From assembly GCF_000204055.1 (NCBI RefSeq), contig NW_006768816.1:320739-384738 (forward strand): DNA of 64,000 bases. The letters are read 5' to 3'. Positions 36,108-58,349 of the stretch are shown here, piece after piece. Every line of letters starts with the position of its first letter. Position 1 is the stretch's first letter. The DNA comes from Melampsora larici-populina 98AG31. Its lineage: Eukaryota > Basidiomycota > Pucciniomycetes > Pucciniales > Melampsoraceae. The position numbers and the translations under genes are program-made. A model generated the notes under the pieces. The model saw nothing but the letters and a program-made list of their open reading frames with translations. It was not told the DNA's origin and did no database searches.

Positions 36108-36174
36108 CACTGCCAGCATTAAATAGGTTCCCTGGCGGGAAAATGGGTACCCCAGGGGACATCATTTTCCAAAT
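36108..36174 (+). repeat. Left 67-bp terminal inverted repeat
   Basis: Perfect partner of 58283-58349 in inverted orientation. It contains cctggcggg and ccccaggggacatc words, and similarity stops abruptly after 36174. Confidence 0.92.
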
Positions 36175-37490
36175 TTCTTTAGCAGACATGTCTTGGAGAC
36201 ATGGACTAGGCCAGATGTTAAATGCAATGAGAAGCGTGAAACCTTAACAAAGGGAGTACTTCATTAAAAGGAGAGTAAACTACTTTGAAAACAGCGTAAT
36301 TTGAACTACAATATATGCAGCCAAAGTGAAGGTATCTCAGTGAAGGTATCTCAACACCTCCTCAATCTGACTGAGTTCAAAACCTTAACAGAAAGCCTCA
36401 AGCCAATACCCCATACAATTTCCCCTTGTCTACAGTTTGGGGTTACAGAGTGGAGCAGCCTGCGCCACACATTTATAGACATAAGGCAGATATGCACATA
36501 TAGCAAGTCTAAGTGAGTGGTATACCACATTGGGCTGATGCAATGTGATGTGCCCAACGCGGCCACACATCACATTGGCACTGCGAAATCTGTCATTGTC
36601 AGCCAGTATTGCAGTGTGTACTGGCTCACACCAATGTCTTGCACCACAGTGGTACAATGCACACTACATTTCCCTGTGATGACATGGGTTCCATTAGCCC
36701 GTGTTGCGCATAAAGGATGTTGCACACAATACAATCCAACACAATTCCACAACAGGGACACGTGGATCACAATGGATAAATCAATCTGACATTGGCCCAA
36801 GTCTTTTATCAGGGTCACAAAGCAAGCCTCAGATACTCATCTTGAACATGCAGTTCAAAGAATACACGCTCAAGTATCTCTGGACTCTGTGGGGAGCAGG
36901 TTTTTTGAGATCCTTCCCAGCCAGACAAATGCATCATGACTGACATATGATATTATACTTCATTAGCTCAAGCCCTAATAGTGTTCCTGCAAGGTCATTT
37001 TTTAACCAGTCAATAAATACAAGTAGTGGCAAACCAACCAATATCCTCACACCAAAAATAGTACAGATACAGTATATCTTGCTTGGTATCAAAAAATGAA
37101 CATCAACTTGATAGTATCTTCATACTTCAAGTACAGGTTGACCTGTGCCTCCAGATGTGACAAGATAACATGGATTATGGATTCATGAAAATTGTATTCG
37201 TTTAAGCCCATATCACCAGAGCACATAGCAAGGAATCATTTGCTTTCCAGTTGTGATCTATATAAATTCTCAAGCTTGTTGAGAAAACTACTTTACATTT
37301 GCATTTATGACCTCTTTAAGCGTCCTCATCATTTCCAAAACATGATATCTTCTTCAGCACCTCAAACAAGTAGATATAGATGTAGTTTGATTTTCAAAGA
37401 CAAAAGAGACTTTAAAAGAGACCATAAAAAAGTTGTATCAATGACTATCACACTCGAGTACAATTGTAATCAGACTTACCTACGCTACAG
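36175..37490. other. Left subterminal region of the giant element
   Basis: No gene. Between about 36500 and 36780 there are many gttgc, ttgcac, tgtgatg and cacatt words on both strands, resembling the subterminal binding-site arrays of CACTA transposons. Overlapping small frames on both strands here are shadows. Confidence 0.45.
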
Positions 37491-40400
37491 CTAATGGTCA
37501 AGGGAAACCATTGCAATGGTTTTGAGATTCAAGAGGAAATGTATCTTGTTTGGTTCGTAGACAATCCACGCACACTGAGCCTTTATCTCGCTAATATGGG
37601 TCAGTCGAGCTGTGCTGGAAATCTCTAGGCGTAAATTTACCTGCATGTCAGGTAAGTTTATCTTGGCGAAAGGGTCGGGCTTCTCCGATGGCACTGGTGC
37701 AAAGTATCTAACCATGAGCCACGTATCAGACACTGGTGGTCGATTTCCAGTCGGACACCGTTCATGTTTGAATATAGACATGATTTTTCCAAACAAAGTG
37801 GCACCATTTGACCGTGAAACCACGTGAACTACGCTGTTCTTCGGATCACGTTCAAAGGTGGTGTAATGTACTCCTTCGTGGCAAATTCCAGTCTCAAACA
37901 TTGCATGTGACGTAACCGGCGCGAACTCGGCAGCAAGTGTATCAGGTAGATCAGACCATTCATGGGATGCTAGCCAGGTACAGTTTTCTGCATGAAAAGC
38001 ATTCAGGCGCTTCACGAGTTGATGTGAGATCGTATCGTCAAGAGGCTGGGATTTTGATTGATTGGAAGAATCTGGCTCAAAAGGGACTGGATCAAAAATG
38101 TCCTTGAGCTGTTGGACAAGCGGTTTCAAGCTGATCGGGATCTTAGACTCGTCCTCGAGCAAGGCAGCTATATTGCCTGCACGACAAAAGCTCGACAGGA
38201 AAGTAATCTCGAGCTCACCTGTCACACAAAAAAGGTCAGCCATTCTGAGAAGGGGAAGTTCAAGGTACAGCAATTACTTACCTAAGTGATTGTTATGACA
38301 TGCTTTCAAGATTCGACCCATCAATCTTTCAAATGGAAATGACCACCAAGCTCGGACGGGTCCGAACTTGGCAAGGATGTCGGGAAGATGCAGGGCGATA
38401 TGGTGGTTGGGAGCGAAAGAAGAGTCTTTGAAGAGCTCGAGAGAGCTGTGTAGATATGTTTGGAGGTGTTCTCGAAGTCTCGAGATCCGCTCGGAGGTCA
38501 TGCTCCGCTTGAGCGCTAGGTTAGTCAAGCATACCAGGTGACCAAAGTCGTGCAGGAGAGCTGCGTTTGACTGGTCCTCACCAGTCCACTGAGGAATCAA
38601 AATGAGAGGCAACTGTACCGTAAATAGAATCCGCAATTCGTCGGCCTTGAGCGTGGCCGAGCCTTTTCAGCCAAGAGTTGGTAATATACGTTGAAGTGAA
38701 GATGGGCTCTGGATTCGTCGTATGCGTGAGTTGACAATGTCTAGTACATTTGAATCAAATACTACTGGGTTTCTCAGCGGGTGTTTATAGCTACCGTCCC
38801 AGCCGTAGAACATCTGGGCAAGAGGGTCGAAAGAATCATCGCCGGAAGACGTGTCTGATGCTAGAATGGCATCTGCGAGTGGAACCCCGACCTCTTGAGA
38901 CTTATGTTGATATCTGTCACGATTTAGTATCCTAGTTGTTGATGCAGCTACTAGGTTTCTAAGTTGATTGGTCGTCATTGGTGATGGAGGAGGGTCGTTG
39001 TCCACCTCTTCTGACATTGCCCAGAATCTTGTGCAATGCCAAGAGAGGAGGCCGAGTAAGATGTTATGCATCGAGTCGATTACATGATAGTCCGTGACCT
39101 TCCAGTAATCCAGCTCGACCATGACTGAGTATCGAACACCCGAATCTTCAAATATCTTCTGGCGCTCTTTTGCAGTTTCAGCATCTCGAGCAGCAAGTGC
39201 ATGAGCTCGGTGCTCAGCTGAAGTTCTGAGTTTCCATGAGTTAGGATCGATGTTGTCAATCTCGTGTATGGTGATGTGACAAAGGGAACAGAAGCAAGTT
39301 GCACTGTGGTGAGCCATTCCGAGGGCACCCCGTAACGCTGGCAGATCTGCTATAAATGGCAAGACAGCCGCGCGTATCAGACGCCCTTCGGGATGGAGGG
39401 GAGTGCGAGAGAGCCAAATCCCTTCATGCCACAGGGAATTAAGTTGGGTGATAAGAGGACGCATGACCCAGTTGGTCTGCTCGAGAGACGGTGCTTTGGG
39501 ACCAGGTGCAATACCAAAGAGATATATGTTCTCGGGTCGGAATCGGACGTTGAATGGTAAAGTCAAGCACACAAGAACAATAAAGGTAATAGTGGCAGAT
39601 CGTCCACCGGGTTTCTTGCCTAAGGGTTGAATCCCATCCATAAACATTGCAAAGGTAAGATTGCCCGTCTCAGCAGTGTATTGTGTACCATCAGGCCCGC
39701 AAAACTCCTTCCAGATGAGTGACTGATGGATGTCCTGAACAGATGAATCGACGTCGAAAGGCTTTCGGGATTCTGCGAGGGATTTATCGAGAGCTTCTTC
39801 GATGGATGGTCGGCAGATGAAGCGGGCAATCCAGTTGTTCAAGTCTTGAAATGCGAATTTGCGGACGTGTTTCCCATTGGGCAGAAGTAAAGGTTGAGAG
39901 CACATTTGGAAAGCACAATCTTCAGGTGAGTCGTCTGGCGTAAAGACAGGGATTGATGACTCGTCGTAGCTTTCTACACCACCCGGAACACGATCCAACA
40001 TGTGAACACATCTTGGAGGGGTGCTATCGACAGGATATAAAGCGAAGCAAGCCGAACAGCAATTGAAATATACCAGGTTCGGGTCGATTTCCAACCACCT
40101 GTGTACCGTTCTGATATCACGTGGGACTTGGCCAAGCGTGAGAGCTGTCGTGTTGGACATAGGTATCCCAGATGGTTCCCCCGTGATCCCGTGTGATAAA
40201 GTCAACTGAATAACATCCCGTTGGGCCCTTAGTAGCCAAGAAGCTGTGACAAGCGAAGAATGATCGAATACCGCCATGAGACTAGCCACCAAGGACATGT
40301 GAATTACAACCGGAATGTCACCGCGCAAACTGTGTGCTAGGATCCTAGCTTTGTGTGTAAAGAATGATTACATCAGTTCTGCTCTCCAAGTAAAGAACAG

Positions 40401-40846
40401 GACATACCCGATAACGTAGATTACAGAGATGTGAGTGGAAGTGAAAGTATTTTGAAAATATCCTCACTAGTGTCAAATGTGTTGTTGAATGCATTGGGGG
40501 GTTCTCCTTGAGAGGCTGCTCGAAAATTGGAACGCCCAGTTGGCTCCAAATCCATCGGCTCATCCAAAGCCGGAACTTGAATATCTTCTTGATCAAGTCG
40601 AAGATTGGGGCCACGATCAGGGTTTTCGACTGGATCACCCTGAAGATCGACATCCATGAGATCCGGATGACGACTATCCGTTTCGAGACGAGCAAGGACC
40701 TCGGCTCGCTGATCTGCCGATCGATGAATTCCACGAGTGATGCGAGGAATAAGCAGACCAGCCTGCTCGACGCCGTTGACAGGGTGAGTTTCCTTGATAC
40801 ACTTGGAGCATAGACATAGGACGACTGGCTGTTTTCCGTGACTCAT
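37491..40846 (-). pseudogene. Tnp2-type transposase (CACTA/Plavaka-like), interrupted by one TGA
   Basis: Starts at ATG 40846 with a Cys pair (LCLCSKC) and an acidic linker. An intron ends in agctag near 40339. A long exon (to 38667) carries the Tnp2 region: 'TFAMFMDGIQPLGKKPGGRS', 'FRPENIYLFGIAPGPKAPS', 'ALGMAHHSATCFCSLCHI' and 'VIDSMHNILLGLLSW'. The conserved segment LKADELRIL follows in the same frame, but a TGA at 38669-38667 separates them. The frame then continues to 38280, a gtaagt intron follows, and the last exon ends at 37491. The family cuts and pastes DNA at CACT(A/G)-type termini. One point mutation therefore seems to have disabled this copy, unless the stop is bypassed. Confidence 0.85.
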
Positions 40847-41729
40847 GATTTTGGATATGTATATTTGAAGTTGGCGTTGAATTATATATATCAGTGGGAT
40901 GAAGTTGTGAGTAGTAGACGTTAGTCGGAGTACTCACAACTGATAGTAGTAGACGCTAGTCGGAGGAAACAAAGGATATATAGCCCGGTGGAATTAGAAC
41001 TGGCGGGTACTTCGACGTCTTGCTCTTCGGGGCCGGGGAAAAGGACCTATTCAATCTTCCAAGTCTTCGAAGTTTTGGATGATTGTGAGATGTGGAAAAA
41101 TATGTAAGGATTGAATTAGGTGTTTTTTAGATCCAAGACAGAAACTGATGATTTTCTTACCATTGGAATTCCTATTCTAAGATTGGATAAAGCTTTGGTT
41201 GTCCTTTTTGTTTCTGGTGTTGGTTTCGAATAGGATCCCGTGGATTGAATGCTACCAAAGATTCTGAAAAGAACACGTTCAAGAATTAGTTTTAACCTTC
41301 AAGTTTTTAGAAGATGGAGTTGTGTGATAACTCACTAAATAGTTTATGAATCAAAACATTCGATTAAGAAAACAATCCATCAAGACCATGATTATGGTGC
41401 CATTGCATAACGTGGATGATGTATATAGAAAAACATTTGGCGCTTATGTATCATCTTGGCTTAATGTTGCTCAATCCCAGACCCCGCAAAAGGATTGTAG
41501 TGTAATAGTATGGAAATGAGGCGTTGAAAACGCTTCAAGTGTTTTGCATTGCTATAATTCTGGTTGAACAAGTATCTGTCTCATAGTTTGATATTTGGGT
41601 TAAGGCATGGGATACGAAGTTGAACGATGAATCTGGGTATATTGTGATTGATTATCATGTTGATTCAGGCAGCTTACAATCATCATATATAAAATAGACG
41701 TAATGATACGAGAGAGGAACTAAGTACAA
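40847..41729. other. Spacer between transposase and accessory gene
   Basis: Head-to-tail spacer holding the transposase promoter side. A ggag-tagtagacg-tagtcgga word is repeated near 40915 and 40950. No gene seen. Confidence 0.4.
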
Positions 41730-44700
41730 TCAGCGCTCAAGTGAGATGTGCGCCGCTAGATTCTTTTTGACCGTGCCCAGGATACGTTGCTCAACAACTT
41801 CCAGTGCTTCACGCCGACCAGGAACTGCATCCAGCCATGTTGGACAATAGCAATCAATACAGAGCCGCTTCGGTGCCTGCTTTTTGCTGATTGGATTATT
41901 GGAATCGCGCTGCCGAATTCTGGGCTGGTTACCGGGGGAACCCTTGACTGGATTCTTCCTTTCTCGGGCGGCATCTATATCGTCAAATATTTTATCAAGC
42001 TGAGGGTTTCGCCAAGGTAATCTTCGAATCTTGCAAAGCTTCCTTTCCGCATCCTCGTCGGCCTCCGGATCTGTTTCATCATCACTGCAGCAGACCTGGA
42101 CAACTGCAGTGAGGGTCCAGAGATTTTCACGGGCCATAACGTAGTTGCTTCGTCCTTCTCGGACCTGGTAGATTTTCGAAATAAGATATGTTTAGACGTC
42201 TTCTTGTTTTGCGAAGATACATCAAACAACCTCAACTCACGTTGCTGATTCGGTTATATTGCATTTTTGCTCTATATGTTTCTTGCTGTCGATTTTGAGA
42301 CCAAGTTCGGTGTTTGCGATATCTGAAAATGATAATGAAGTTTAATGTCAGTATTCAATCACTATGGCCAAAGGTTAGAAGCTTACTTTCGACGCCAGGT
42401 ATCATTCATATGGTTCACGATCATGGGGTATATTGTATTGGCTTCGGCGACGGACTTCGATACACCAGAATACTCGCCTGATCGAACTAGTTTGAGAAAG
42501 ATGGCAGTTGCAACTTTGCAGAGATGTGCATTGTCATCTGAATTCATAGGCTGCTCCCATTCCGGTCGAAATCTCTTGACACCGGCTTGTGACAAAGTGT
42601 TTTGGATGATTTTGACGGAATTGGGACTCTCATCTGTCACTACCAGTCCACTCCCATAGACTCCCTCATCGGCATCTTCCTCATCGGCGGGTCCTGCCTC
42701 AAGTAAGCCGTAAATTGTGGTTTCTGTCCTCCACAAACGCCTTTCAGCGGGTGTAGCACCATTTAGAGGTATTTTGTTTTCTGGTTTCAAGCCGAGGAGA
42801 AATCGAATAAGCTTGCGGATATACATCTGGAAAGGATATACGTTGCACAGTGGTTAGTGAGGTCACGAGATGATAATGAACGAAATGAAGCTTACTCTCT
42901 GTGGAGAAGATCTGGGTGATGGAGTTCCACCGGTACTTTCTTCGCCATCGCTATTTTGTCTGGAGCTTGACAAATTCCTGGGAGTTGATCTGGATGTGCC
43001 ACTTTGACGGCCCACATAGTGTTTCAAGAGATCATTCATGGAACTGAATTCGGAGGTCAAACGACGTATATCTTGCGTGTTGGAAGAGGAGATGTTGTTC
43101 AAAGAAAACACGTGTTTTTTCATACTTCGCAACTCATTTCTGATTGCGGAAAGTGCCACATCATCGGAAGATCCTGAGGGGCCTGGTGCAGTTGTTGTTG
43201 CTCGCTGAGTTCGGGAGGAATCATCACCCAGGAGATCTCTCTCATTCCAAGCACCAAGAATTTCAGCTTCACCTTCTTCAAGTTCTTGCTCCATGTCGGA
43301 AATAGAATCCTGGTTAACCGCCCGTGCTTTCCCTTTGGACTTTGATGAAGTTCGAGGGTTCGACACTTCCTCCATCTCCTCATCATCATCATCATTTTCG
43401 TCTCTACCAGGCGCCCAGTCATCGTCCTGTAAGTCATCAACACCATTTCCGTCATCTGAGTCTAAATTCTCGTTCTGTCGTCGGCGGAGATTTGGGTGAC
43501 TCGAATTCACGGAAGTCTTTTGGGGTTTGGTGGCAGGAACTCGAAGTTGCAAGGGATTCCCTGACTTTGGTGTGATCTTCACGCGTAGGCTCTTGGAAGG
43601 TCCTCCACGCCCTTGTACGAGTGAACCTCCGCGAGAGCCCCTTCGAACGATGTCGGAACCCCGGCGATGGCTGCCACGTCGATTGGATTTCTTTGGGAGA
43701 ACTGGCCTGTCGGAATCGCTATCATCCTCAGAAGACTTGTGGGTGAGTGCAGATTTTTTTTTTCGAGGACTAATTCGAAGTTTCATGATTGGAATGTCGT
43801 CATCATCATCATCGGACCCGGAACTCCTGGTGTGTTTGTGCGGAGGTAATATCGAGCTTGCTTTCTGCTTCTGAGATGGACCTGCCGTCCCGGAGGTGGA
43901 ATTCTGATCTGAATTCGATGCACGACGAGTAACTCGTGGCCGGAGGCGGCGATCTAAGATGGGTCCAAGACTGTCCCTTTCTTCTTCAGAGCTTGCCTCA
44001 GACGCAGGGTGAAGAAATCCAGCGCGTTCGGTTCGAGTCGGACCTGCCTGACGCGAATTAGTCTTCCTCGTGACGCCAGCGCCAGTGGGAAGATGAGTCG
44101 AAGTGATTTGAGAGTCCTGATTGGTGATTTGTGGCTGAAAATCGCATTCGATAGAAGGACCAGCCCCGGAACCTCGCAATATATGCCCGTGATTCTCTTC
44201 AACTTCGTCGCCAAAGGGATCATTGGAAGTCCACTGCTTCAAAATGCGGAGCGCTTCTTCCTCTTCCTGAGTGGGCGGATTCCCGTCTATCATGTCAGTT
44301 TCTTCATCGACGTTTTGAAGTGTCTGGCGGTTTGTAGCTGTACCCCGACATTTAGACCTCGTAAGCTTGTCTGAGCTCCAAGTAAAAACATCAAGATTGG
44401 TAAAATGAGAAAGACTTACAGTTTGATATTTGCACTTGGTCTGTAGATCTTGAGGGTTGATGTGAAAGGTTTGGCTGCTTTCGGGGTCTTCTTGATCATG
44501 AACCGTTTCGTATGTCAATTTCTTCCACTTCATCCTCAAGTGGTTGATTGTTTTTTTTTCGGGCCTTCACAGGGTTACAGTTCTTGTGGTAGAGTCTGGA
44601 GATTTGGTCGTTACTGAGGGTGCATCCAGTAACGTCCACTCCTACGGCAGTTAACGCGTCCACCATCACGTTCCTGTTGAGTTCGGTAGCGCCTGCACCT

Positions 44701-44968
44701 TCAAACCAGCAACATAGAGGTTGAGCACAACATGCCTGAAAGGGGAAAGAGACTCCGTCTACGTACCATTTGAATCTCCTGAAAAGCCTGTACCAGACAG
44801 TCTTCGTTTCCCACCAGCAACAACACTCGTCCCTTGAAAAAAGGATCTCGTTAGCACCTTATTGCTACGGGGCTATGAGAGGGCTCGACGGACGCACCAT
44901 TGCGAGTAGGATGTTCGTTGGCTTCGGCAGTGGAGGCCCTTCTTCTGGATTCACCTCGTGTCTCAGGC
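41730..44968 (-). CDS. Multi-exon accessory protein candidate (second transposon gene)
   Basis: Clear 3' exons are 44400-ish to 42896, 42826-42387, 42322-42241 and 42164-41730, all joining in frame (gtaagc, gtaagc, gtgagt donors). Further short exons lead back to an ATG at 44968 and encode 'ATELNRNVMVDALTAVGVDV' and 'LSNDQISRLYHKN'. The long middle is acidic and Ser/Arg-rich, with runs of Asp and Glu, several basic clusters and a helical segment near its end. The C-terminal exons contain 'MYIRKLIRFLLGLK', 'VREGRSNYVMARENLWTL' and a Cys-x2-Cys-x-Cys (LCIDCYC). I know no named domain. The position beside the transposase on the same strand suggests the TnpA-like DNA-binding partner, which is inference. 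Exons between 44540 and 44400 are tentative. Confidence 0.6.
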
Positions 44969-46290
44969 ATGAAATCTGGAAAGTCGAAGTAATCACAAAG
45001 TAGATCAGTATATGGTTGAACTTGAAGGACACTCTGACGACTGCGTTGGAGACACACCAAGAGAACCTCTGAAAAATGTTGAGAAAGCTTTGAAAGTTTT
45101 AATTGAGCGAAAAGGATGCCGATTTCTACGGGATCTTATGAAGGTATCAGGGAGGTAAAATAATTAATTTTTGGAAAAAGAATCTGAAGCAATGAATGAA
45201 GTTATCCAAAAGGTTGGATGATGAAAGCGAGACGGATATGGATTCAAGACTTTCGAAAAAGTAGGAAATTAAGTGTATATATATTAATGGAATAGAAAAT
45301 AGGTGGAAAGATATAGAATTAAGGGAAGATATAAAATCAAGTGTAAAGACAATTAGTGGATAGGAGTAAGTGAAATAAAGATAAAAATGCAAAAAAAGAA
45401 GAGAGTCTAACAAAACAGACTGTGAGCGTGGAGCGTGCAGAAAGGAAGGGAATTTAGCAGGGTATAATAAGGAAGACTTCTTACCCAGTCGATGATTTAT
45501 TTGGAACCTTTTTACTTACAGAAACGTTGCCTTTGAGTATATAGTATGGTACCGCGCCTTTCAACATCGCGCCTGCTCGGCTGCGCTTGTCTTCTCTGAA
45601 GTGGGTGGATGCGCAGGAAATGTCCACGGCTGAGGGATGAGGGTCAGTAGGTGAGCGTTATCTTGGGGTTGAATGCTGAGAGCTTACCGGTTTGCTAGAG
45701 CTCAGCCTCTGAGCTCAGAGGAAAAAGGGAGAAATAAAGCCTCTCAGTTCGATCAAACAACTCAGGTGGAGGGCGAACGGAAAGACCGGATTGCATGTAT
45801 CTTCATGTAAGTATGCAGAAACGTTTGGCGATCATATAATTAAGAGGTTCAAAGAACCAGTAAAAGAAAGAGAAAATAAATTCTCAAAGTCGACATTGGA
45901 GTAAGTGGCAGTAGTGCAGAGGTAACTATAACAGAGTCTTGTGTTCTAAGTGCTTTGATTGTGGTGAGGAATGGGAGCGGACCAAAAAACATTCGTACCA
46001 TCAGGCTGAAGGTTCCAAAAAAAACCGGAGGAATAAAGAAAATTGCAATTCTACACACCTTGAGACGGTACCTCAGAGGACAGATTGATTACATGACATG
46101 TTTGTACAAGTCAAGTGAAAAAACATGATTTAAGAAGGATACGACTTGTCCAAAGAGGAGTTTTAAATCTTGGGCAAAACAAAATAACCGTAGTGGGAGC
46201 AAGTAGTACAATTACGGAATAAGAAAAAAAATTCAACAATAAAAAAAGGCTAAGCTGAAAACGAGATATTAACGGTACACATGAACAAAT
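44969..46290. other. Spacer, AT-rich, no supported gene
   Basis: Upstream of the accessory gene. Frames at 45147-45413 and 45849-46058 (minus) are low-complexity Phe/Leu/Ser stretches without motifs. A cagcctctgagctcagagg inverted word lies near 45704. Confidence 0.4.
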
Positions 46291-47205
46291 TCATTTGGCT
46301 GATCTCTTCCTTAGACTCTTGGCTTTATGAGATGAATTTGGGTTGTTTAACTTGCTCATCTTAATGTCGAACTCTTGGCCATAACACTTCACCACCTCCT
46401 TCTTGTATAATTTCCACTCCTCGTCCGTTTTGCCTTCTTTCATTTTCAGGAGACCGTCGATTCGCTTGACCAATGCTGCACTGATCTGTAAAGAACAGCC
46501 GAATCGAGTGATCGGAGATGATTTTGGATGAATGGGTGCCCATCCTTCGTCATAAGTCGTAGATGTCTAGCATTCGAGCCTGATCGGCGAGAAGTGCGCT
46601 CCGGGTTTTCCCAGTCTGTTGACTGACAGCCGTTACACCTGATTTGATAGGACGGAAAAGCGTGAGCATGAGGCCATTGAGGTGACAAAAAGACCGCATT
46701 CAAAATTGAAAGCGTACCAATCTTTCGTCCTTTATCTGAGCCAGGGCGAAAACCCGCTGCCCTCATTTCACCGCAGTCTTTCAACCCTTGCATTGAACTA
46801 TTAACCTTTACGGTTGAACGAGCCAAAGTATGCTGATAAATACTTTTGATGACGAAATTCATTTCCGTTTTCTTCTCTCGTGACACATGAAGAATGAATG
46901 CAGAATTCCACCTTTTTCAATTTTGTTTGTCCTTCAGGTCAATCATTTTTCACTTGGGAAAAGATCCGCATCCGGGGCAGTTTAGGGAGAGCATCCTCTG
47001 CATGCTTTTTCAGAAAGTAAATTCGACAATCCGGAGGTACTCCAAATCGGCGACTCAGCTCCTTTCTCAGGGATGCGTATGCAATGGTCCTAAGTTCGTC
47101 TCGACCGGAATGATTGGGTGCCTTTCGTTTGGGTCGGTCACGGACTTGGGCGCTACTTCTCTTTTGGCTGTAGTTACGACTGCTAGAGGAGCGTTTTTTT
47201 GGCAT
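46291..47205 (-). CDS. Small Lys/Arg-rich protein of unknown function
   Basis: ATG 47205 opens a very basic N-terminus (PKKRSSSSRNYSQKRSSAQ) with a nuclear-signal character, followed by 'AYASLRKELSRRFGVPP'. After a short intron (donor gtgaaa) the frame continues with 'MNFVIKSIYQHTLARSTVKV', then less certain exons. The last exon ends 'LKMKEGKTDEEWKLYKKEVV', then a basic tail, with the stop at 46291. Middle exon limits (46700-46480) are tentative. No domain is recognised. It lies inside the candidate giant element on the same strand as the transposase. Confidence 0.45.
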
Positions 47206-47833: not shown

Positions 47834-47942
47834 AACCTGCTTGCTTTCGAGTCTCGTGTACAGCGGATCGGATGTTTAGGCCGGGTTTAGTAACCAAGCA
47901 ACATCCGATCCGCTGTACACCAGACTGGAAAGCAAGCAGGTT
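47834..47942. repeat. Long hairpin, 43-bp arms with two mismatches
   Basis: The arm at 47834-47876 and the reverse complement of 47900-47942 agree except at two positions; the loop is 23 nt. The core word gtacagcggatcggatgtt is exact on both arms. It lies between the minus-strand and plus-strand gene blocks of the giant element. Confidence 0.9.
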
Positions 47943-48280
47943 ACTAGAACGAGAAAAACGGAGGTCTCGGAATCATTGAACCTTTGTTTTTCAAGTGTAG
48001 TACATACTTTCAACACTTGAGCTTTCAAAACTTGAAAGCAGGGGATGGAAAGCAGAGAACCCGACTCAAGCACTTTTTAAGTAGTAAGGAGTACAGTACA
48101 GGCAATTGAGCAATACAATACGGTTTTTCACATGTCAATTCATTGGAAACGGGACACTGGTACCACCTAGTATTACATATGTAGTAGTAAGGCTAAGACT
48201 CACTCTACTACTCTATGCCCACTATCCCCACCTCCGATTCAATTTTTTTTTGGAACACCTCATACATAATCTCATTTGGA

Positions 48281-48597
48281 TGACTGACTCGTGGTGTCAC
48301 TGGACCCGAACGCTTGGAATCACCAAACAAGCGGCCTTTACGTATTTCGGCACACCCAAAACTTTGGAGGACCTCTCCATAAGCGGGCTTAAGGCCTCTT
48401 AATCCCAGCCACCATGAATGTTTTTCGAAAAAAAACTTTTCTTCTTTTGGTAGACTGACTCAAGGTGTCACAGCACCCGAACGCTTTCAACCACCCAACA
48501 AGCAGCCATTACGTACCACATTTCGGCATACCCAAAAAATTTGGATGACCTCTGATAAAGCCGGGTTAAGGCCCTTAATCCCAGCCACCATGGAGTG
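48281..48597. repeat. Tandem duplication, period about 172 bp
   Basis: 'gactgactcgtggtgtcac' ... 'cccgaacgctt' ... 'acgtatttcggcacaccc' ... 'cccagccaccatg' at 48281-48416 is repeated with divergence at 48453-48597. Confidence 0.85.
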
Positions 48598-48801
48598 ACT
48601 TTACACGATCAGCCTTCGAAGCTGCCCCCAAAATGGCACAGTCATGACATCTATGCCTGTGCCGTCGTACGAGGTTTCAGATTACACGCTCATGAGCTTT
48701 GGACTCAATTGAAATGAATCTCAAAAAGGAAACATTTCGAGTCAGCAGTCTCCGCCGCATATTGAGCGTTAATGAGCAATTTTTGGTTACCTATGCTGTT
48801 C

Positions 48802-48858
48802 CTCGTTGTACGAGGGCTTGGGGGCTCAGCCTGAGAGTCAAAGCCCTCGTACAACGAG
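48802..48858. repeat. Perfect hairpin, 18-bp arms
   Basis: ctcgttgtacgagggctt (48802-48819) pairs exactly with aagccctcgtacaacgag (48841-48858) across a 21-nt loop. A direct repeat of gtcagca(g/a)tctccgccg flanks it (near 48741 and 48874). Confidence 0.9.
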
Positions 48859-48986
48859 CTACGAACCGTTTGAGTCAGCAATCTCCGCCGATGATTGGCT
48901 GTTATGACATGTATGTAGCTCATCGTACGAGGTCTCGGGTGACGAGTGATAGCATATGAGGCCCTTCGCTCATAAGCCACACATTC

Positions 48987-49391
48987 TTGTCATGTTCTCA
49001 CCCCAATCAGCACCAAGTTGACCTTCAAGCCGCCCAACCTCGCTCAAATCAGAACTCTTCCATCAAACCTGATATCAAAGGTTTCCACAACCGTCTCAGC
49101 GCCTCTCCAGAAAACTTTATCATGGCCATGGCTCTTCGCGCTTTAGTGTTAGAAGATGATTTACATGTATTCTTACAAGTGGCTGGAGGAAATGTACGCC
49201 TACCCTTGGTGACCACGACTCAACTTGTAGAAATCCTCGCTGTGTTTCATCCTGGTCTTCGTCTGGGCAGGCGGCTCTCTAGAACAACGGCCGTGCGCCT
49301 CTTCGACTTATTAGTTCGACCTTTCATTGAACACATGGAAAGTTTCGACGAAGAGACCAACATAATGTCTTATTGGGAGGTACCTCTTTGA
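48987..49391 (+). CDS. Hypothetical protein or exon within the giant element
   Basis: An open frame with 'FIMAMALRALVLEDDLHVFL' and 'LPLVTTTQLVEILAVFHPGL', helical and amphipathic. Its end coincides with a possible donor (gag then gtacct near 49380), so it may be an exon. The first in-frame ATG is near 49123, because the open start at 48987 is not ATG. No domain is recognised. Confidence 0.4.
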   Translation: MSCSHPNQHQVDLQAAQPRSNQNSSIKPDIKGFHNRLSASPENFIMAMALRALVLEDDLHVFLQVAGGNVRLPLVTTTQLVEILAVFHPGLRLGRRLSRTTAVRLFDLLVRPFIEHMESFDEETNIMSYWEVPL

Positions 49392-50164
49392 GCCGAGATA
49401 TGATGCACAAGGTAGGCGGCGTCTATCCCACTCATATTCGCGTGCACCTTCACCACAAGATTGAAGATGTTGATCATTCTTATAAATTCTCAGATTCAAA
49501 ACTCTCAAGAGAAGCCGGATCTAAATATTTTGGCCTTTGTGATTTGTTTTAGTGGTATTGAATTATGTAAATCCAACCTCACGGGCTATGACTTCAACCG
49601 AATAAATTGAATATCATTGGGCTTTTTATGTTGTCTTTGCACTGACCTTTAATTGAGATTCATTATGAGTACTGGTCCGAGAATTCATATGTAAGCCTGA
49701 ACTCCCATGGGTATCAACAGAAAACTAGCTTTCGTCAATTTCGTTCAGCTTCTTCCCCCCAAACATAGTGGTGTTTTCGATGAAAAAGGGGTGAGAATAT
49801 GATTCTCACCTATTCGAAATTGTAGTGAATCTAGTTGGAAAGCGTAATATGCCTTTAAAAGACACTTTCCAATAGACAGATGAAGCCCTGTGGCCTGATT
49901 ATTCCCCTTACCCGCTCCGAAGGATATTTGAAATCTGCCCTTCATTTGGGATCCTTTCATGAACACGTCCTCAATTTCAGATACTTTCACTTCCATTAGC
50001 CCGGTCTCTTTTGGCACGACGATCATATAAAGTCCATTAGCATGGACTACCGATTGGTTTTCCCTTACTTCATTATCCTTACGCTTATCACCCTCCAGTT
50101 TTTTCTTCTCATAAATCCCCATTGCTTGAGAATCAATCCATACCAAGTCTTTCTGAAAACGAAT
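49392..50164. other. Spacer upstream of the coiled-coil gene
   Basis: No confident gene on the plus strand. A 188-codon minus-strand frame (50311-49745) overlaps the first exon of the coiled-coil gene and is discussed among the rejected items. Confidence 0.35.
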
Positions 50165-51212
50165 ATGTCGACCTCGGCCAATCCCATTCCTACATCTACC
50201 GTACTTGACCCCGAAACCCCTTTTGGCGAGCACGAGATAGCACCCCAGACCTGCCCTTTGGTTTTGGACACGAAGACAAATGCAGATATCTTTGGAGACC
50301 AAAATAACCAAGTTGAAATAGTCAAAGGTAGAAGTCTAGATTACTAACGTATCACGCTTATAGCACTTTCTGACCTCTCTATATCTGAATCGCATCAATT
50401 AGCTGTGACTATGGCTTCTGATTTCAACACAGACATCAGCGTGAAAGAGGTTGAAGAGCACGCGAAGCAAGTTCAAGATCTTGAAACCCGAGGTGAGCTA
50501 ATCCTTGATACCCTCACTCTCTGACAGTTGATCCTGACCCATTGATCGATGGATTTCACTGTGTAGTTGCGAAATTGGAAAGCGGTTTCAATCGCCCCTC
50601 CCTTGAAGCTGTAACTTCCGGCACAAACAAGAAGATTCAAGTTCAAGACCTTGAAGCTCGAAGTGAGTCCCTCCTTGATTATATCACTCTGGTAGTGGAT
50701 TTTGACTCATTGATCAATGCATATTGTGAAATAGTTGCGAACATGGAAATACGTTTCAACCTCCTCAGCACTCGAGCGGGAATTTGTAACGAAAAAATTA
50801 TAACCAATGAACTGGCTTTAAATGCACAACTCGCCCAAATCAGACGTCAGTATATCCTCTCTTGGTGGCAGTTTCATTTTGTCTGAAGGACTAATGTCCT
50901 GCACTTTTTTCAGCATCCCAATTTGAGCGCAATGAATTCATGGCCACCGAAGCATTAAAGGAGAGCTGTGTGCTTGCGAATAAGGTCATGAATTTAGAAG
51001 CCGAGACGAGTGATCTACAGACACAATTAGATTTGAACTATATAACACTTCGGGGACACGGGAGAGTCCTCCAAAGAATTATAGATACATTGCACTTAGA
51101 TATCGATATTGCAGCAGAGATCGATTTTGACCCAGCGGTTGAAAACAATCCACCACTTCCAAATACTCCTTCCACCGGAAATGATTGGACTGCTGTTGAC
51201 CAACCAGTCTAA
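50165..51212 (+). CDS. Coiled-coil protein, 265 residues, five exons
   Basis: Exons 50165-50327, 50364-50492, 50567-50662, 50735-50845 and 50914-51212 join in exact phase. The first intron is only 36 nt, with a textbook tactaac branch site. The product has a Pro/Thr-rich head. Heptad-like segments follow ('VKEVEEHAKQVQDLETR', 'KKIQVQDLEAR', then 'VMNLEAETSDLQTQLDL'), and the tail is acidic. Exons 2 and 3 end in near-identical VQDLE(T/A)R, and the introns that follow are also alike, so an exon-intron pair was duplicated. No named domain. It is the first intact cargo gene on the plus strand of the giant element. A role in oligomerisation is inference. Confidence 0.65.
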
Positions 51213-51563
51213 ATGTAATGTCACATAAATAGTTTCATATTTTTTCCTCTTTAACATATGTATTTAGCACATCCTTAGTTTACTGTGCCGCCTCAAATAC
51301 TTAACTCAATCAAATTTGTTCTTTGAAACGTTGTTACGTTGAGCCCACGATAAGAGCGAAAGGTGATCATTAAAAAAGCGCCGCCACATGTCTTCATACA
51401 TGACATATACTCTTGGCAGATTCCTCCCTGACACCCGATCCAGAATCAATGACTTTCTTGATGCCCTTTGTAATGGATGCATAGGTACGAAGTGTGAGCC
51501 TTTAAGTTTGATTATTCAAGAACCCACTAACCCCACTGACTTATGTACATAACTTAGTGGTTG
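51213..51563. other. Spacer between cargo genes
   Basis: No gene seen. It holds the 3' end of the coiled-coil gene and the presumed promoter of the next gene. Confidence 0.4.
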
Positions 51564-52729
51564 ATGAGCGCGTTTACCTCCCTTTATGATGAGTGTTCCC
51601 TTCTTTCTCACTCTGCTGGAATTTTCACCAGCTCCTTCATCTTACTATTTTCTTTTCCACCAGTCTTCATGTGTTCGCACTCGGTTCATTTTAATCATAC
51701 ACACAGTTTGACGACTTTTGCTCTACATCTGGGCCCCAAAATCAAACAGCCTCCCCTACGTCTACAGCATATCTCTACAGACGTCGACCTCAGTCTCTAC
51801 GATTACTTTACTCCTTCCGGAATCTTGAAGGTCACCATTGCCGATTCAGACTCCGCCGCTCAATCACTTATGATCCTGATTCAGGAAGGCTCGCAAACCC
51901 TTTTTGATGCCATCAACAACGCACACCGTTCTGAAACTGCCGTTGTGCTAGGCACTCATGAAAGCAACCTCCTGCCCCACACGCCTCACACACTTATCAC
52001 TATTCTAGAACCTCAGAACACCTTGGCAAGTCCGACCAACACCAAGCTGAAACAAGTTGTAGATGCTAGACACCACGAGCTCTATGAATTCAGGAACACC
52101 AAGATCTATTGTACACTCATGTTGTTTCAAAGCGAAGGAGATCAGTGCTCCGGATCAGAGTTGCGCCGTCTGGATCTGAGATTCGTCTCTTCTCATATGG
52201 ACCATACGTTGTCGATCGTTGGTGTCGTCATATTTGATACAGGGTAACCATCATTCCTTATCATGAAACAAATCACACCCGCCTTCGCTGATGTGCAGTT
52301 GTCTCTTGTTCAGCCATCGACTGCTGCCAAAACTACTGGCTCTGAGAGAGACTCCCGATACACACAAGATGTTTCGCGACAGGGGCCAGGATCAAAAGGC
52401 TTCACAAGACTGTGAACAGCTGAGTTCGAACAAACCTTCCGACCCTGTGCTTCAACGGGATCTGATCACTGGTTAGTCGTCTTACTTGCGTCCTATTCCC
52501 CCTTTTACCAACCCTCATTTTCTAATTTTCGGCTGTACAATATGTATCAACAGCTGGCCTCACTTTGGTCGCTGAAACTCCAACGCCGAAGGAGCGTAAT
52601 GATAACCCGACTGATCCCAATCAGCCAGACTTGGAAGACGAAGCATTTGAGATTCCCCCGGAGATCTGGGACTTTTTGCTTGACGAACAACAGCGGTATC
52701 CGGATTATTGGCTTTCACTTAACTCATGA
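51564..52729 (+). CDS. Hypothetical protein, about 342 residues, three exons
   Basis: Exons 51564-52243, 52299-52471 and 52554-52729 join in phase (donors gtaacc and gttagt, acceptors tgcag and caacag). The start is the first in-frame ATG. Residues about 20-40 are hydrophobic (IFTSSFILLFSFPPVF), possibly a membrane anchor or an unrecognised intron. The C-terminus is acidic, with 'FEIPPEIWDFLLDEQQRY'. No domain is recognised. It lies between two other plus-strand cargo genes of similar organisation, with several hundred bases of spacer on each side. Confidence 0.55.
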
Positions 52730-53442
52730 CGCTGTCAATTGATGTCCAGCTTTCTCAGAGGACGATCATGACTGTCCACGAGTGTGTCCTAACCGTGTAG
52801 CATTAACAGTCTGGACTCTGAACTACGAAGTTCACTGGTATATGTGTGACAGTATGACCCGCATCATGCCTGGCTTGTATCTCTTTATTTATTAAATTTT
52901 TGAGCTCTATTCTTATGTTGTTATGCGCTGCGGTAGAGCTTTGTTGGAATTGTGAGCCTCAGACTTAGATTTTCGATCTTTGTAGCGATAATTGTACATA
53001 AGAGACTTGGACATGTCAAAATTCTCTCATTTCAAATGACTGACAATCCAATCATATCTGTCTTCGCCACAAACAAAATCCCTCGTGTCCATGTCTCTCA
53101 TTTGAGCTCAGATGTGACTTGGCGACGTTGCAAGCAAGCAACCTGCTTTATTTTGTGTTCAGTCTCAAAGGCACTGGCTTGAACCATGTTGTTCTTTTGA
53201 GCTGTGGAGTCCACCGCTGCTGAGCTGTGCTCGGTCGTTCAATTGGTGACGTTTAGTCGAACTTCAGCCATGCTTGGACTCAGCTTGTCGCTGAGTCGGA
53301 AGCGGGGCTGTCATGGAATGACTTTGAAGTTGAACCATACCTGCCAGCCGCCTCATCATTCCATCACTCAGTCCCTAAGCAGGCTGAGCTTTCAGTCTTG
53401 CTCGACGAGTCACGAAGGCCAACTCCAACGTGAATCAGCCTC
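52730..53442. other. Spacer upstream of the SAP-like cargo gene
   Basis: No supported gene. Small frames at 52952-53182 and 53204-53449 have no motif or splice partner. Confidence 0.4.
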
Positions 53443-53449
53443 TATATAA
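53443..53449 (+). promoter_or_regulatory. TATA-like box for the SAP-like cargo gene
   Basis: tatataa lies about 230 bp upstream of ATG 53675 and is followed by pyrimidine-rich leader sequence. It is a plausible core promoter; position and sequence are the only evidence. Confidence 0.35.
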
Positions 53450-53509
53450 GACAGCGCAACCAAGACCCATTTGAGAGGCCCGTAGACCAAAGTCATACAT
53501 CACAACTCT

Positions 53510-53605
53510 CATACTTCCTCATAGTCAATTATTATATAAATTAATCATACTTCATCCTAATCAATTGTGATAAGTTATATCTATCATACTTCATCCTAGA
53601 CAATT
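53510..53605. repeat. Short tandem leader repeat
   Basis: Three imperfect copies of catacttc(a/c)tc-ta-tcaatt(a/g)t in the presumed 5' leader of the next gene. Confidence 0.6.
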
Positions 53606-53674
53606 ATTCACCGTAATCAAACCATTACTTTTCACTCGCACTACCCCTCTCAACGTCACGATCTCAATCTCACG

Positions 53675-54472
53675 ATGGACACGCCAACTGTACCTGTGGA
53701 TCTTCGACAGCACAAATACTGGGATAAAGTTCAGACGGTCCCCGATCACATCAAGTATTTGCTCAAACCTGATTTAGATTATAGCGCAAAAAGGACTAAA
53801 AAAGAAGACCTTCGAGATATGATGAAGCATTTCGCAATTGACCGATCAAAATACCCTACTAGCCATAAGAAAGACAAGCTCCTCGAAACTTACAAGGACC
53901 TGCTACTTCCTGACCTTGAGCCTTTCATTCCTAAGGTTGATACTGAAGCCCAGGCGAGAAACGAGGAACGAAGCAAACAGGCCCCTTATATGACGCCGAG
54001 TTCTTCATCAATCGAATCCCTCCGCAACGCTATCCTCACTAAGATCAAAGCGGTCTTTGTTCTCCGGGCCTTCACTAAACCTGCGCTTACCAGACTCTGG
54101 CGGCACGCGTTCTATCCTCCATCCGACGGCCGATACGACTATGTTGAATTCTACATGCGCCCACATTGGTTCACCGAGGCGGAACTAGCTTCTAAGAGTC
54201 GCGACGTCATCCGGCATGCTTTGCAATGCGAGCATCCTGACTTATTCATACCTCTTGTGGCGTGTACTGAACCTATTTTACGTGCGCTCTATGCAAAATT
54301 TATGCTCGACAAACATGACCTGGATAGCCAGCTTTGTTACGGGGTACACTACTTTATCATTGAGCCACCTCTTCTTAAGGTCAACATCGATAACACCATG
54401 GACGAGGGGTCTGAGGCTGGGCCAAGCAAGGGTTTACATCATCTCCTCAATAAAAGAAGTCCTCAATTTTGA
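53675..54472 (+). CDS. Intronless 265-residue protein with a SAP-like segment
   Basis: One uninterrupted frame from ATG 53675 to the stop at 54470-54472. Residues about 40-76 ('KKEDLRDMMKHFAI' ... 'KKDKLLETYKDLLLPD') resemble a SAP-type helix-extended-helix DNA-binding motif. This is a pattern judgement, not a database match. The C-terminal half is rich in aromatic residues ('LWRHAFYPPSDGRYDYVEFY', 'LLKVNIDNTMDEG'). If the SAP reading is right, it may bind AT-rich or element DNA. It lies inside the giant element, and the frame is intact. Confidence 0.6.
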   Translation: MDTPTVPVDLRQHKYWDKVQTVPDHIKYLLKPDLDYSAKRTKKEDLRDMMKHFAIDRSKYPTSHKKDKLLETYKDLLLPDLEPFIPKVDTEAQARNEERSKQAPYMTPSSSSIESLRNAILTKIKAVFVLRAFTKPALTRLWRHAFYPPSDGRYDYVEFYMRPHWFTEAELASKSRDVIRHALQCEHPDLFIPLVACTEPILRALYAKFMLDKHDLDSQLCYGVHYFIIEPPLLKVNIDNTMDEGSEAGPSKGLHHLLNKRSPQF

Positions 54473-55178
54473 TCTCGCTTTTTGACGTGTTTTCGCCCAG
54501 ACTGTCTTATGTTTAGATAGTAGAATTAGTTTTTTGTAACACTTGATGAAACTATAGACGCCCTTTCCTTGTTCTACTTGGCGATCCCATTAGCTTCTCA
54601 CAATTGCCAAACTTCTTATACGAGAAATTACAGACATAAAATAACTTGATAATCTACTAAAGCTCAATTCGGTTTGAATCAATTGAGCCTGAGCTATCAT
54701 TCATGAATCATAAGTATATCCCCTTTTCGTGATACCTGAAATCGTCAACGATTCTTTGACTTTTGAGCCTTTGGGTGACTAGCTGCCCTCAGCAGGACCA
54801 TTTGACTGATTTCAAATCACCCGCTCTCTTTGCGCCCGTAGCAGATTTTTTTTGTAATCAATCTGAGTCATTTGGATAGGCAAGATCACTGACCTACTAT
54901 GGCGTTTGTGACTATCTGACCTGTTATCCCTTTTTCAGATTCAAACCAGCTTAAAGTGTTATAAATCCTTTCACCTACCAAACATCTCCAACCGATGCCT
55001 TTCTCCCAATTTCTTTTGGTAACTCTCCTTTGACGGTGGCAAATTGTCCCCTGGGCAAGTTGCTTCATAAGCTGACTTCGCTGCCTGCTTCACTTTCCTC
55101 CTCTTCATATTGATCCCCAACTCGATCGTAGATACATACCGACAATTCGACGAGAATTTCAAAGCACAAGCAAAGACT
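54473..55178. other. Spacer between cargo genes
   Basis: No supported gene. Minus-strand frames at 54886-55234 are short and overlap the start of the next gene. Confidence 0.4.
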
Positions 55179-56410
55179 ATGCCCGTACACGATTTAGGAT
55201 GCGCGCCCGCTCTCGGCGAGCCCGAGCAAATCAAAGTTCACCACTACAATAGCCAGGGTCACATCGTGTTTAGCCCCGATGGACATGGACCTGGATACAT
55301 GCAGGGTGTCTGTATACTCCGGAAATTGTCGTGAGCCCGATCTTACCCATCAAGACCACCAGTTTTCTTTCGCGAGCTGTAAGTGTTCACAATACTGACT
55401 CAATTAAACCGTTTGGTGTCCTATCTAGCGACAATCAAGCTGCCCCTCGAATCCAGGACGACGTCCCCTTACCTCTAGATTTCAGAACTAATGCCTTGGA
55501 AGGCCTGAACACCATGCTGAAAGAAGTCGATGCCCTGACAAGCGTGATCATTATGACTCCCGATGGTTCTGGCTACCTCGGTGGGGTACATATACCCCGA
55601 AATCAACTGTGAGATTTTGTCCTTTGTATTTTGCTTCGATGCACTTTTATGCTAGCTCCAAACTCATGCCTTAACCTCTTACCTTGCCCAGCACGATGGT
55701 TGACGGTAAACCGAACCTCTTGTTCGATCAAATGATTTACACCCAGAAACCCAACTTTCAAAATATGTCGATGCGGGAACTCGCGGAGTGGCGCCTCGGG
55801 GTCACGATTCAAGCTCCCAAGACTGCTGTTCAGTTCAACCGGGTGTTCAACTTGAAACGCGACGACGAGGGTTACAGTAATAGCACGTATCCGGTTCCTT
55901 TCGCGGGCGATATGTCCAATGACCTGGAGGAGAAGATTATTAGCTTAGAATACAACAACATCTTCATACAACATTGCCTTCGACTCGCAGAACAAGCCGC
56001 CGACCACGGTCACGTAGCCCTTGCTCCAACCTTATCGGAGTTGCACGGTATTCACTTGAGGGAACCCACTCTTTCACTGGCCTCTTCCCACGCTCACGCG
56101 AAAGTCGGATCTCATGACACAATCCAAAGTCCCTGCCTGAAATCCAAGGGTTTGAAAAGCATACGTAGGTAGCCTTCTAAATTTCTTCACCGCCACCTTA
56201 CAGCTAATACTTCCCCTCTTATCTTGCATGATAGACTCGGCTGAGGGTTCACCCGTCAACACAAACCTAACCGGCTCTGCACAAACTCCGAAGGACTGTA
56301 GAAAACGTCAAGCTCATCCCGCTCCAGCCCGCGAATCAACAAAGCGTCAACGTACTGCTTCAGAACCAAAGCTACCAGGTGATTCCCAAAAGAGTCATCC
56401 ATTCTTATAG
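55179..56410 (+). CDS. Four-exon hypothetical protein, 326 residues
   Basis: Exons 55179-55330, 55429-55608, 55692-56164 and 56235-56410 join in exact phase (gtgagc, gtgaga, gtaggt donors). Exons 1 and 2 each end in a similar motif (SPDGHGPGYMQGV and TPDGSGYLGGV), which suggests an ancient exon duplication. Exon 3 carries 'MSMRELAEWRLGVTIQAPK'. The last exon is basic and Pro/Thr-rich, with KRQRT, a possible nuclear signal. No named domain. The true start could be in an upstream exon, because the frame is open 5' of the ATG to about 55110. It is the last gene before the right subterminal region of the giant element. Confidence 0.65.
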
Positions 56411-58282
56411 CTTCTAATAGCGCTACGCCAGTTACATCAATCTAGCTTGTTGTTTCCATTGGTATTCTCATTATCAGGGTCTCTCTGATTTAGTATGGGC
56501 TCATGCTAGGTTCTATTTGTCAGATCTATCTCTTTTGTCTGGGCCTCAGCCAGGAATCATGTCTTTTTATTCTTGTAATTACATCAAAAGCTCTAGTATT
56601 GGATTCATTGAATATGTATTTGATATTTCGTGGGTTTTGACGAAGGCCAAAGGTGTTTCTCTTTATTCTTGTAATTACATCAAACTAGTATTGGATTCAT
56701 TCAATCTGAATTTGAGTTCTCAAAGGTTTTGACAAAGGCCTTGGCTGGGGAGCAAGTAGAGAACTGTGATAGACTATTCAGCTTTTGAAAATACCTATCA
56801 ATGTAACATGAAGATACAAGGATCATAGCTTGATTAACATGGCACAGAAAGCAAAACCAGGTGTGCCCATACATGTGCTACAGACCTCAATTCAGGGTAG
56901 ATGTGTGAAAGAGGATTGTGGCACATTTTAAGTGATTCTTAGGCAGTTTTTTTGGTAGAGAAGAGGTGTTCTGGTGCACACTTACCCTGAAACATCATAG
57001 ATTGCCTGAACAAGCTTGGCTGGAAGACTGACAAAAATCAATGGTGGCCAGTATCTGTCCACTTAATGAGGGGAATATAAGTCTGGCCAGTGTGTATATA
57101 TCATGTGTGCTTTATGTGAACTCATATGTAGCACTCATCATACACAAACATCTATATTTTCACATAGGCTGGGGTGATACACGTTGGTGGAGCTGCAGGC
57201 CAACCCAAATTGCATGGGAGTGACATTTCCTTTGGCCCATAATTCTGGTGATGTACATCAGCCCTGTTGGGTGGATGAACTTATTTTTCAGCCTGCCTTG
57301 CCGCATGACAAGTTTTGTTGTTGGACCACGAAAAGATCTTGTGTATATTTCTTTGCACCTGTTGCACATGTTGTGTGGTGCAACGGGGGGCACACAACTA
57401 TGCTTTCTCAATTGGTGTTGTGGTGCGCTCTGGGAGATATCAACAATGTTTGGCTGCTTGTTATGTGTTGAGGTGAAACATGGCTGCAAAACCCCTTTGG
57501 GAGAGTTTTGTGCAAAAACTATTTGATAAACTTCACAGGACACGCTATGGATATCACTTCAGGTTTTGCTAGTCCCACATGCACTGCCTGTCATATTTAC
57601 CAACCCAGATGCAACACCGGGCCAGCAGCACTGCAGAGACATTGTGGTTTTTTGATCCATGCCACTTGGTGAATCCCTTAGATTTGTTGCGGCCTCTGCC
57701 ACGTAATGAAATCCTTGAGATCAGTGTTTCTTTCAACCACAACAATATCTGTTGCAAAATGATGGGGTTTTATTTTTGTGGTGCTATTGCACATGCTCCG
57801 TTGCACAACAGGTGGGGGTACAGCCCAACCAGACCTGGCTATTTGATGTGGTGGTACTTGACACAGAACATTGCAAGTCTCGGGAATTTTTCACATGTTG
57901 AAGCACAGCACAACTGAAACTGTCCCTTGTGTGGAGTGTTGTGTCACTGGCACAGGGTTGCCAGATGCCTCAATTTCTATGTTGTTGAAATCTGAGAAGT
58001 ATCTGAGACGTATGGGTTGTCTACCTTTAGGTGGGGTTTCTAGGAGGTGTTGCGTTGAGGCAAGGTAGGCCTAGACAAGTTCTCAAACAGTCTCCAACCA
58101 TGCACACCTCCAATCTTGATAGCTCTGTCCTTGTGGTATGTTGTAATTTACCCAGTTTTTCCACTCACAGAAGTCTTTATTCCTATCAATTTCTCTACTC
58201 CTCCCTTTGTTTGATATTGTCTACTCGTAAATGTGGCCAAAAGTTGCTTCAGCCATTTACCCTTCATATCTCTATTCCAGAG
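56411..58282. other. Right subterminal region of the giant element
   Basis: A direct repeat of ttattcttgtaattacatca ... attggattcatt ... ggttttgac-aaggcc occurs at about 56565-56655 and again at 56660-56745. From 57150 to 58070 the DNA is crowded with gttgc, ttgcac, tgttgt and gcaac words on both strands. The many frames here (57160-57543, 57579-57917 and others) are overlapping shadows without splice or domain support. A related word-rich block recurs at 61810-62180. Confidence 0.5.
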
Positions 58283-58349
58283 ATTTGGAAAATGATGTCC
58301 CCTGGGGTACCCATTTTCCCGCCAGGGAACCTATTTAATGCTGGCAGTG
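58283..58349 (-). repeat. Right 67-bp terminal inverted repeat
   Basis: Exact reverse complement of 36108-36174. It ends ctggcagtg at 58349, and the hAT-derived coding sequence begins at the next base. Confidence 0.92.

What the first reader, a model, noticed from the sequence alone, without database searches (positions are those of the whole stretch)
36108..58349. Possible giant 22-kb cargo-carrying CACTA/Plavaka-like transposon
Two perfect 67-bp inverted repeats beginning CACTGCC lie 22,242 bp end to end. They enclose a Tnp2-type transposase, an accessory-protein candidate, a basic protein and several intact multi-exon genes of unknown function on the opposite strand. CACTA elements normally carry two genes; a TIR element bearing five or more additional intron-containing genes would be a notable cargo transposon. 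The lack of matching 3-bp flanks (CAA/ACT) is the main weakness.
Basis: partly seen in the sequence, partly recalled or inferred. Interest (0 to 1): 0.88.

Follow-up and report, generated by a model that had tools for sequence, protein, structure and literature searches.

The report
Large multi-gene CACTA-type rust fungus transposon
A roughly 20-kilobase cut-and-paste transposon, almost surely from the poplar rust fungus, carries a transposase plus several extra genes that related copies also carry, and the copy in this window turns out to join the ends of two separate insertions.

Summary
Confirmed in substance, with one correction. The 67-bp inverted repeats (22,242 bp end to end) are real transposon ends. 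A diverged element in the same genome (C4, 19,267 bp, TSD TGA/TGA) carries five of the window's seven genes, and 22 of 22 short relatives examined have 3-bp target duplications. The genome is almost surely Melampsora larici-populina 98AG31. Inside lie a tnp2-type transposase and G3, G4, Gw, G5, G6, G7; transposase, G3, G6 and G7 are under purifying selection (dN/dS 0.07-0.33). Of 77 transposase places, 68 have G3 and 51 have G6 within 25 kb, so these look like element genes rather than captured host cargo. The CAA/ACT mismatch is explained: each window end has its own empty site (CAA: a paralogue on C23; ACT: a hAT-like gene whose other half is on contig C118). The window element therefore joins two insertions, by misassembly or recombination. 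Termini and TSD fit EnSpm/CACTA, not Plavaka. The window transposase has one premature stop. Functions of the accessory genes remain unknown. A new variant of a known kind: a multi-gene CACTA lineage.

The parts
36105..36107 (.). CAA, target triplet of insertion A (left flank)
   Evidence: Paralogous locus on C23 reads ...GTGTGACCAA then CAGAGG... without insert
36108..36174 (+). left terminal inverted repeat, 67 bp, begins CACTGCC
   Evidence: matches other ends in the genome
37491..40846 (-). tnp2/CACTA-type transposase gene; intron 38219-38281 shared by 3 elements; one premature stop at 38667-38669
41730..44970 (-). G3: large, charged, mostly low-complexity protein with conserved C-terminal part (MELLADRAFT_67324); my model starts at 44666, the published protein at 44970
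49122..49391 (+). G4: 89-aa protein; 18 match rows in the genome
50509..51212 (+). Gw: two adjacent open frames; weak relative (32%) in the C28 copy
51669..52729 (+). G5: low-scoring predicted gene; its C-terminal part is shared with the C4 and C28 elements
53675..54472 (+). G6: 265-aa single-exon protein
55179..56410 (+). G7: predicted 4-exon gene; 3 match rows in the genome, each beside a transposase
58283..58349 (-). right terminal inverted repeat, 67 bp
58350..58352 (.). ACT, target triplet of insertion B (right flank, in a hAT-like gene whose other half is on C118)

Best explanation
The stretch joins the ends of two near-identical insertions of a large EnSpm/CACTA-type transposon. The element moves by cut and paste: a tnp2-type DDE transposase acts on the CACTGCC... 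ends and makes 3-bp target duplications (ends, TSDs and empty sites shown; catalysis inferred from conserved D, D, E and CxxC). G3 and G6, which accompany most listed transposases, are most likely helper proteins of transposition, or of expression or silencing control, as TnpA is in plant CACTA elements (inferred; TnpA recalled). G4, Gw, G5, G7 and, in other copies, Gx form a variable accessory set (presence shown, function unknown). Short 374-383-bp elements with the same ends are mobilised in trans (TSDs shown, trans-mobilisation inferred).
For: Paired ends. Second element with paired ends, TSD TGA/TGA and colinear genes. 20 of 20 fetched short elements with an exact 3-bp TSD, on average 98.9% and 99.5% alike within two groups, and 2 of 2 others. 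dN/dS: transposase 0.07 and 0.12, G3 0.09-0.19, G6 0.21, G7 0.33. Of 77 transposase places 68 have G3, 51 have G6 and 48 have both within 25 kb, where about 4% of random positions lie that close to a transposase. Gene-content table with one 22-kb control stretch that has none. C118 flank plus window right flank read as one open frame and align end to end with other genomic copies that have no insert. The window left flank goes on without insert, CAA single, in a 97.7%-identical paralogue over 1,852 bp whose similarity ends at the boundary.
Against: No assembled copy of exactly the window's form has matching TSDs. The window transposase is interrupted. Transposase_21 was over its cut-off for the window exon but was not listed for the C4 protein, which matched DUF4218 at its cut-off. 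9 of 77 transposase places have no G3 and 26 of 77 no G6 within 25 kb. No enrichment of subterminal 9-mers was found. No function was found for any accessory protein; a precomputed label PF26792.1 on P0006 was not reproduced by hmmscan; the G3 model was unusable (pLDDT 37.5).
Confidence: 0.85

Rival explanations
1. One real chromosomal element produced by ectopic recombination between copies A and B, rather than an assembly misjoin.
For: Both flanks have independent empty sites, which fits either cause; the copies are 99.3% identical over 4.1 kb, long enough to recombine.
Against: C118 stops 4,105 bases inside its copy, and no further high-identity right end was listed (40 of 87 candidates scored), as expected if an assembler used the shared interior once. 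That the source is a draft of a dikaryon is recalled.
Confidence: 0.3
2. Nested or clustered short elements: the paired ends belong to short elements and the genes between them are unrelated host genes.
For: Short elements with these ends are common: 40 scored of 647 first-look candidates.
Against: The C4 element has five of the same seven genes between the same ends with a TSD; 3 of 3 listed G7 places, 52 of 65 G6 places and 67 of 87 G3 places lie near a transposase.
Confidence: 0.03
3. The extra genes are captured host cargo of adaptive value (Starship-like logic).
For: Gene content varies among elements. 13 of 65 G6 and 20 of 87 G3 places have no listed transposase within 25 kb and were not examined.
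Against: The protein searches, whose sensitivity is limited, listed only Melampsora proteins and four unnamed proteins of source 'lgn'; no Pfam match over cut-off for G3, G4, G5, G6, G7.
Confidence: 0.1

Closest known systems
EnSpm/CACTA transposons of rust fungi (Kojima 2025, PMC12730594; abstract, section 3.2, figure legends and passages read)
   Same: CAC..GTG ends, 3-bp TSD, CACTA-type transposase with a CxxC motif; some rust EnSpm transposases resemble Plavaka proteins
   Different: That paper deals with TET/JBP-carrying families; here no Tet_JBP match reached the cut-off in the genome (the 14 control genomes gave none either) and a different set of genes is present
Plavaka (PlavakaA and PlavakaB in PMC12730594)
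   Same: Transposase of the same broad CMCT group
   Different: TGT..ACA with 2-bp TSD, or CATCA..TGATG with 2-3-bp TSD; ours is CACTGCC..GGCAGTG with 3-bp TSD
CNIRT6 of Cryptococcus neoformans (PMC12810828; passages read)
   Same: Fungal CACTA-group element with CACTG ends
   Different: The passages seen mention one ~6.9-kb annotated gene (the transposase); no multi-gene set was seen in them
Tgmt* of soybean, 20.5 kb (PMC2613891; abstract read)
   Same: CACTA element of similar length
   Different: One large gene with TNP2 and TNP1 functions; subterminal repeats present
Starship elements of Ascomycota (PMC12134995; search listing only)
   Same: Large gene-carrying fungal elements
   Different: Tyrosine recombinase instead of a tnp2 transposase with TIRs

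Membership tests
EnSpm/CACTA | CAC..GTG terminal inverted repeats | tested here: met
EnSpm/CACTA | 3-bp target site duplication | tested here: met
   C4 element TGA/TGA, 22 of 22 short elements; ACT across C118 and window. The window's own two flanks differ, explained
EnSpm/CACTA | tnp2 (Transposase_21) transposase with D, D, E and CxxC | tested here: met
   Transposase_21 38.8 bits over 28.6 for the window exon, not listed for the C4 protein; D, D, CxxC and E positions kept in C4, C28, C41, C7 and the C4:2.51-Mb locus (roles assigned by eye after PMC12730594)
EnSpm/CACTA | subterminal short repeats (known for plant CACTA) | tested here: inconclusive
   9-mers in the subterminal parts are no more frequent than in shuffles; degenerate or longer motifs were not tested
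EnSpm/CACTA | second, TnpA-like DNA-binding protein (recalled) | tested here: inconclusive
   G3 and G6 are candidates by association only
Plavaka | TGT..ACA or CATCA..TGATG termini | tested here: not met
   definition
Plavaka | match to a Pfam Plavaka profile (existence of the profile recalled) | tested here: inconclusive
   none listed at E up to 10 or up to 1; that the library holds such a profile was not checked
KDZ | target duplications of 4-8 bp as reported for KDZ elements | tested here: not met
   3-bp TSDs; KDZ figures (7 bp, Kyakuja; 8 bp, Zisupton; 4-8 bp)
Starship | tyrosine-recombinase captain | tested here: inconclusive
   no such Pfam match among the ORFs scanned; not every ORF was scanned

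The most novel reading that the evidence does not exclude
Rust fungi host an old, diverse lineage of CACTA transposons that became multi-gene mobile units: a shared core (transposase, G3, G6) and private gene families (G4, Gw, Gx, G5, G7) that come and go among elements in a mosaic, with short elements parasitising the same ends. One genome holds at least 77 diverged transposase places; 53 of the 78 match rows have no stop in the aligned part.
Probability: 0.5. Interest if true: 0.75.

Novelty: new variant of a known kind. Interest (0 to 1): 0.62.

Why it matters
CACTA elements are usually thought of as units of one or two genes (recalled; the soybean Tgmt* abstract describes one large gene). 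A lineage in which several genes ride together between the ends under purifying selection, belonging to families seen here only in Melampsora and a few unnamed sequences, would widen what DNA transposons can be, would set a basidiomycete, DDE-type counterpart beside the tyrosine-recombinase Starships, and gives testable helper-protein candidates. The flank result also shows how a draft assembly, or recombination, can make two insertions look like one element.

Full report
What was checked. The two inverted repeats are as described: 67 of 67 bases identical, 22,242 bp end to end, flanked by CAA and ACT. The window lies at G000:C52:320739-384738 in a 98.3-Mb genome. Two public proteins come from contigs of 717,909 and 1,156,490 bp, the lengths of C52 and C28 here, and are named Melampsora larici-populina 98AG31: P0006, 100% identical to the G3 part used as query, and P0001. 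The window is therefore almost surely from that poplar rust. One mismatch: P0009, whose sequence equals most of the G3 model of the C4 element, is listed on a contig of 2,725,587 bp, while C4 has 2,715,381 here.

The ends are real transposon ends. The first 38-100 bases match 40 places (40 of 87 candidates scored). A pair on C4 faces each other 19,267 bp apart; its first 50 bases match the window's ends at 94%, its own ends agree over the first 79 bases, and the flanking triplets are TGA and TGA. Short elements with the same ends are common: 40 of 647 first-look candidates were scored. I fetched 20 of those 40; 20 of 20 have an exact 3-bp duplication, and the two subgroups (8 and 12 copies) are on average 98.9% and 99.5% identical. 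Two others, on C66 and C3, also have one (ATA, TTG). Such likeness suggests recent mobility.

The same genes travel together. Stop-to-stop ORFs, my own simple gene finder and tblastn with mostly window proteins give: window: transposase, G3, G4, Gw, G5, G6, G7. C4 element: transposase, G3, Gx, G5, G6, G7, so five of the window's seven. C28 copy: transposase, G3, G4, Gw, Gx, G5, and by public proteins of the same scaffold a G6 (P0001) and a G7 (P0011); that part of C28 cannot be read here. C41 locus: transposase, G3, G4, Gx, G6. C7 stretch: transposase, G6. C4:2.51-2.54 Mb: a distant transposase, Gx, G7. A 22-kb control stretch of C66: none. The gene finder and the published G3 model agree on much of the protein but differ at its 5' part. 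G4 lies in opposite orientations relative to the transposase in the window and the C28 copy.

Genome-wide, tblastn rows (lower bounds) number 78 for the transposase (77 of 267 candidates scored), 67 for G6, 88 for G3, 18 for G4 and 3 for G7. Before counting I dropped one transposase fragment (C13) and merged two pairs of split G6 rows (C31, C2) and one pair of G3 rows (C12), leaving 77, 65 and 87 places. Of 77 transposases, 68 have G3, 51 have G6 and 48 have both within 25 kb; 52 of 65 G6 and 67 of 87 G3 places lie within 25 kb of a transposase; about 4% of random positions would. The commonest order is G6 upstream on the same strand (32 under 5 kb) and G3 downstream on the opposite strand (39 under 5 kb). 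Six loci (C52, C4, C28, C91, C18, C65) have G3 upstream on the same strand within 5 kb: the window's type. Against a strict rule: 9 of 77 transposases have no G3 and 26 no G6 nearby; C118, cut by the contig end, lacks both, and C28, partly unreadable, lacks G6 in this count. The 13 G6 and 20 G3 places without a listed transposase were not examined.

Selection. Nei-Gojobori counts on well-aligned columns (at least 7 identities in 21 columns) give dN/dS 0.07 and 0.12 for the transposase, 0.09-0.19 for G3 exons, 0.21 for G6 and 0.33 for G7. dS is high (0.7-2.0), so the ratios are rough. G4, Gw, G5 and Gx were not tested.

State of the transposase. An intron at 38219-38281 is shared by the window, C4 and C28 copies and explains one in-frame stop. 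A further stop at 38667-38669 is absent from the C118 copy. The C4 transposase core is an open frame of 964 codons. D, D, CxxC and E positions are kept in C4, C28, C41, C7 and the 2.51-Mb locus (assigned by eye following the motif description in PMC12730594). The C28, C41 and C7 transposases show one or two stops each.

Why the flanks differ. C118 begins inside a near-identical copy (99.3% over 4.1 kb) whose left flank ends in ACT. Joined to the window's right flank it reads as one open frame that looks like the C-terminal part of a hAT transposase (recalled label; no profile run). That 69-residue join aligns over its whole length with many other genomic copies that have no insert, for example on C3, C50 and C12 at 64-71% (150 of 261 candidates scored), while C118 matches residues 1-42 and C52 residues 40-69. 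So C118's end and the window's right end are best read as the two ends of one insertion, TSD ACT. The window's left flank has a paralogue on C23, 97.7% identical over 1,852 bp, whose similarity stops two bases past the element boundary and which goes on CAA-CAGAGG without insert, within an open frame. So the left end is a second insertion. The 22,242-bp unit therefore joins copy A to copy B. I favour misassembly over recombination because C118 breaks off inside the element and no further high-identity right end was listed, but cannot prove it. The family-level claim does not depend on this, since the C4 element is a complete unit with a TSD.

What it is and how it works. Ends, TSD and tnp2 domain place it in EnSpm/CACTA; Plavaka termini as given by Kojima (section 3.2 read) do not fit. 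Shown: ends, TSDs, empty sites, shared gene set, purifying selection on four genes. Inferred: cut and paste by the DDE transposase, helper roles of G3 and G6, mobilisation of short elements in trans. The N-terminal part of G6 is modelled confidently as helices (pLDDT 82-91 by blocks over residues 11-80) and looks SAP/HeH-like to me by eye; no profile supports this. G3 is mostly low-complexity and charged. Neither has a function from the databases searched.

Relation to known work. A 20.5-kb CACTA element is known in soybean (abstract of PMC2613891), fungal CACTA relatives since 2006 (passages of PMC1636069), CACTG ends in Cryptococcus (passages of PMC12810828) and CACTA in Pucciniales (passages of PMC12210899). 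Size or superfamily alone is therefore not new. A conserved set of additional, element-borne gene families was not seen in the papers listed, most of which I did not open.

Noticed in passing
G000:C4:2517204-2537133 (L033-L035): Another probable multi-gene element: distant transposase, G7 (71% by tblastn, up to 73% by tblastx) and Gx within 20 kb; its ends were not found.
   Followed up: partly
G000:C4:2506454-2506693 and C6:742570-742803: Tet_JBP matches under the cut-off (25 bits, cut-off 34.9); the first lies about 11 kb from the locus above.
   Followed up: no
window 21478-22294 and 30749-31548: Two copies of an ~820-bp repeat, both about 97% identical to C118:18175-18992, which they also match in the other orientation at 84%.
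   Followed up: no
window 59115-61247: 711-aa open frame that looks like a non-LTR reverse transcriptase with RNase H (by eye only), downstream of the interrupted hAT-like gene.
   Followed up: no
G000:C14:1021449-1033017: Facing 38-bp ends 11.6 kb apart; could be another large element or two short ones.
   Followed up: no
window left flank 34280-36107: Similar to C23 (97.7% over 1,852 bp) and, for its last 350 bp, to C11 (95%): a recent duplication or a multicopy gene family.
   Followed up: partly
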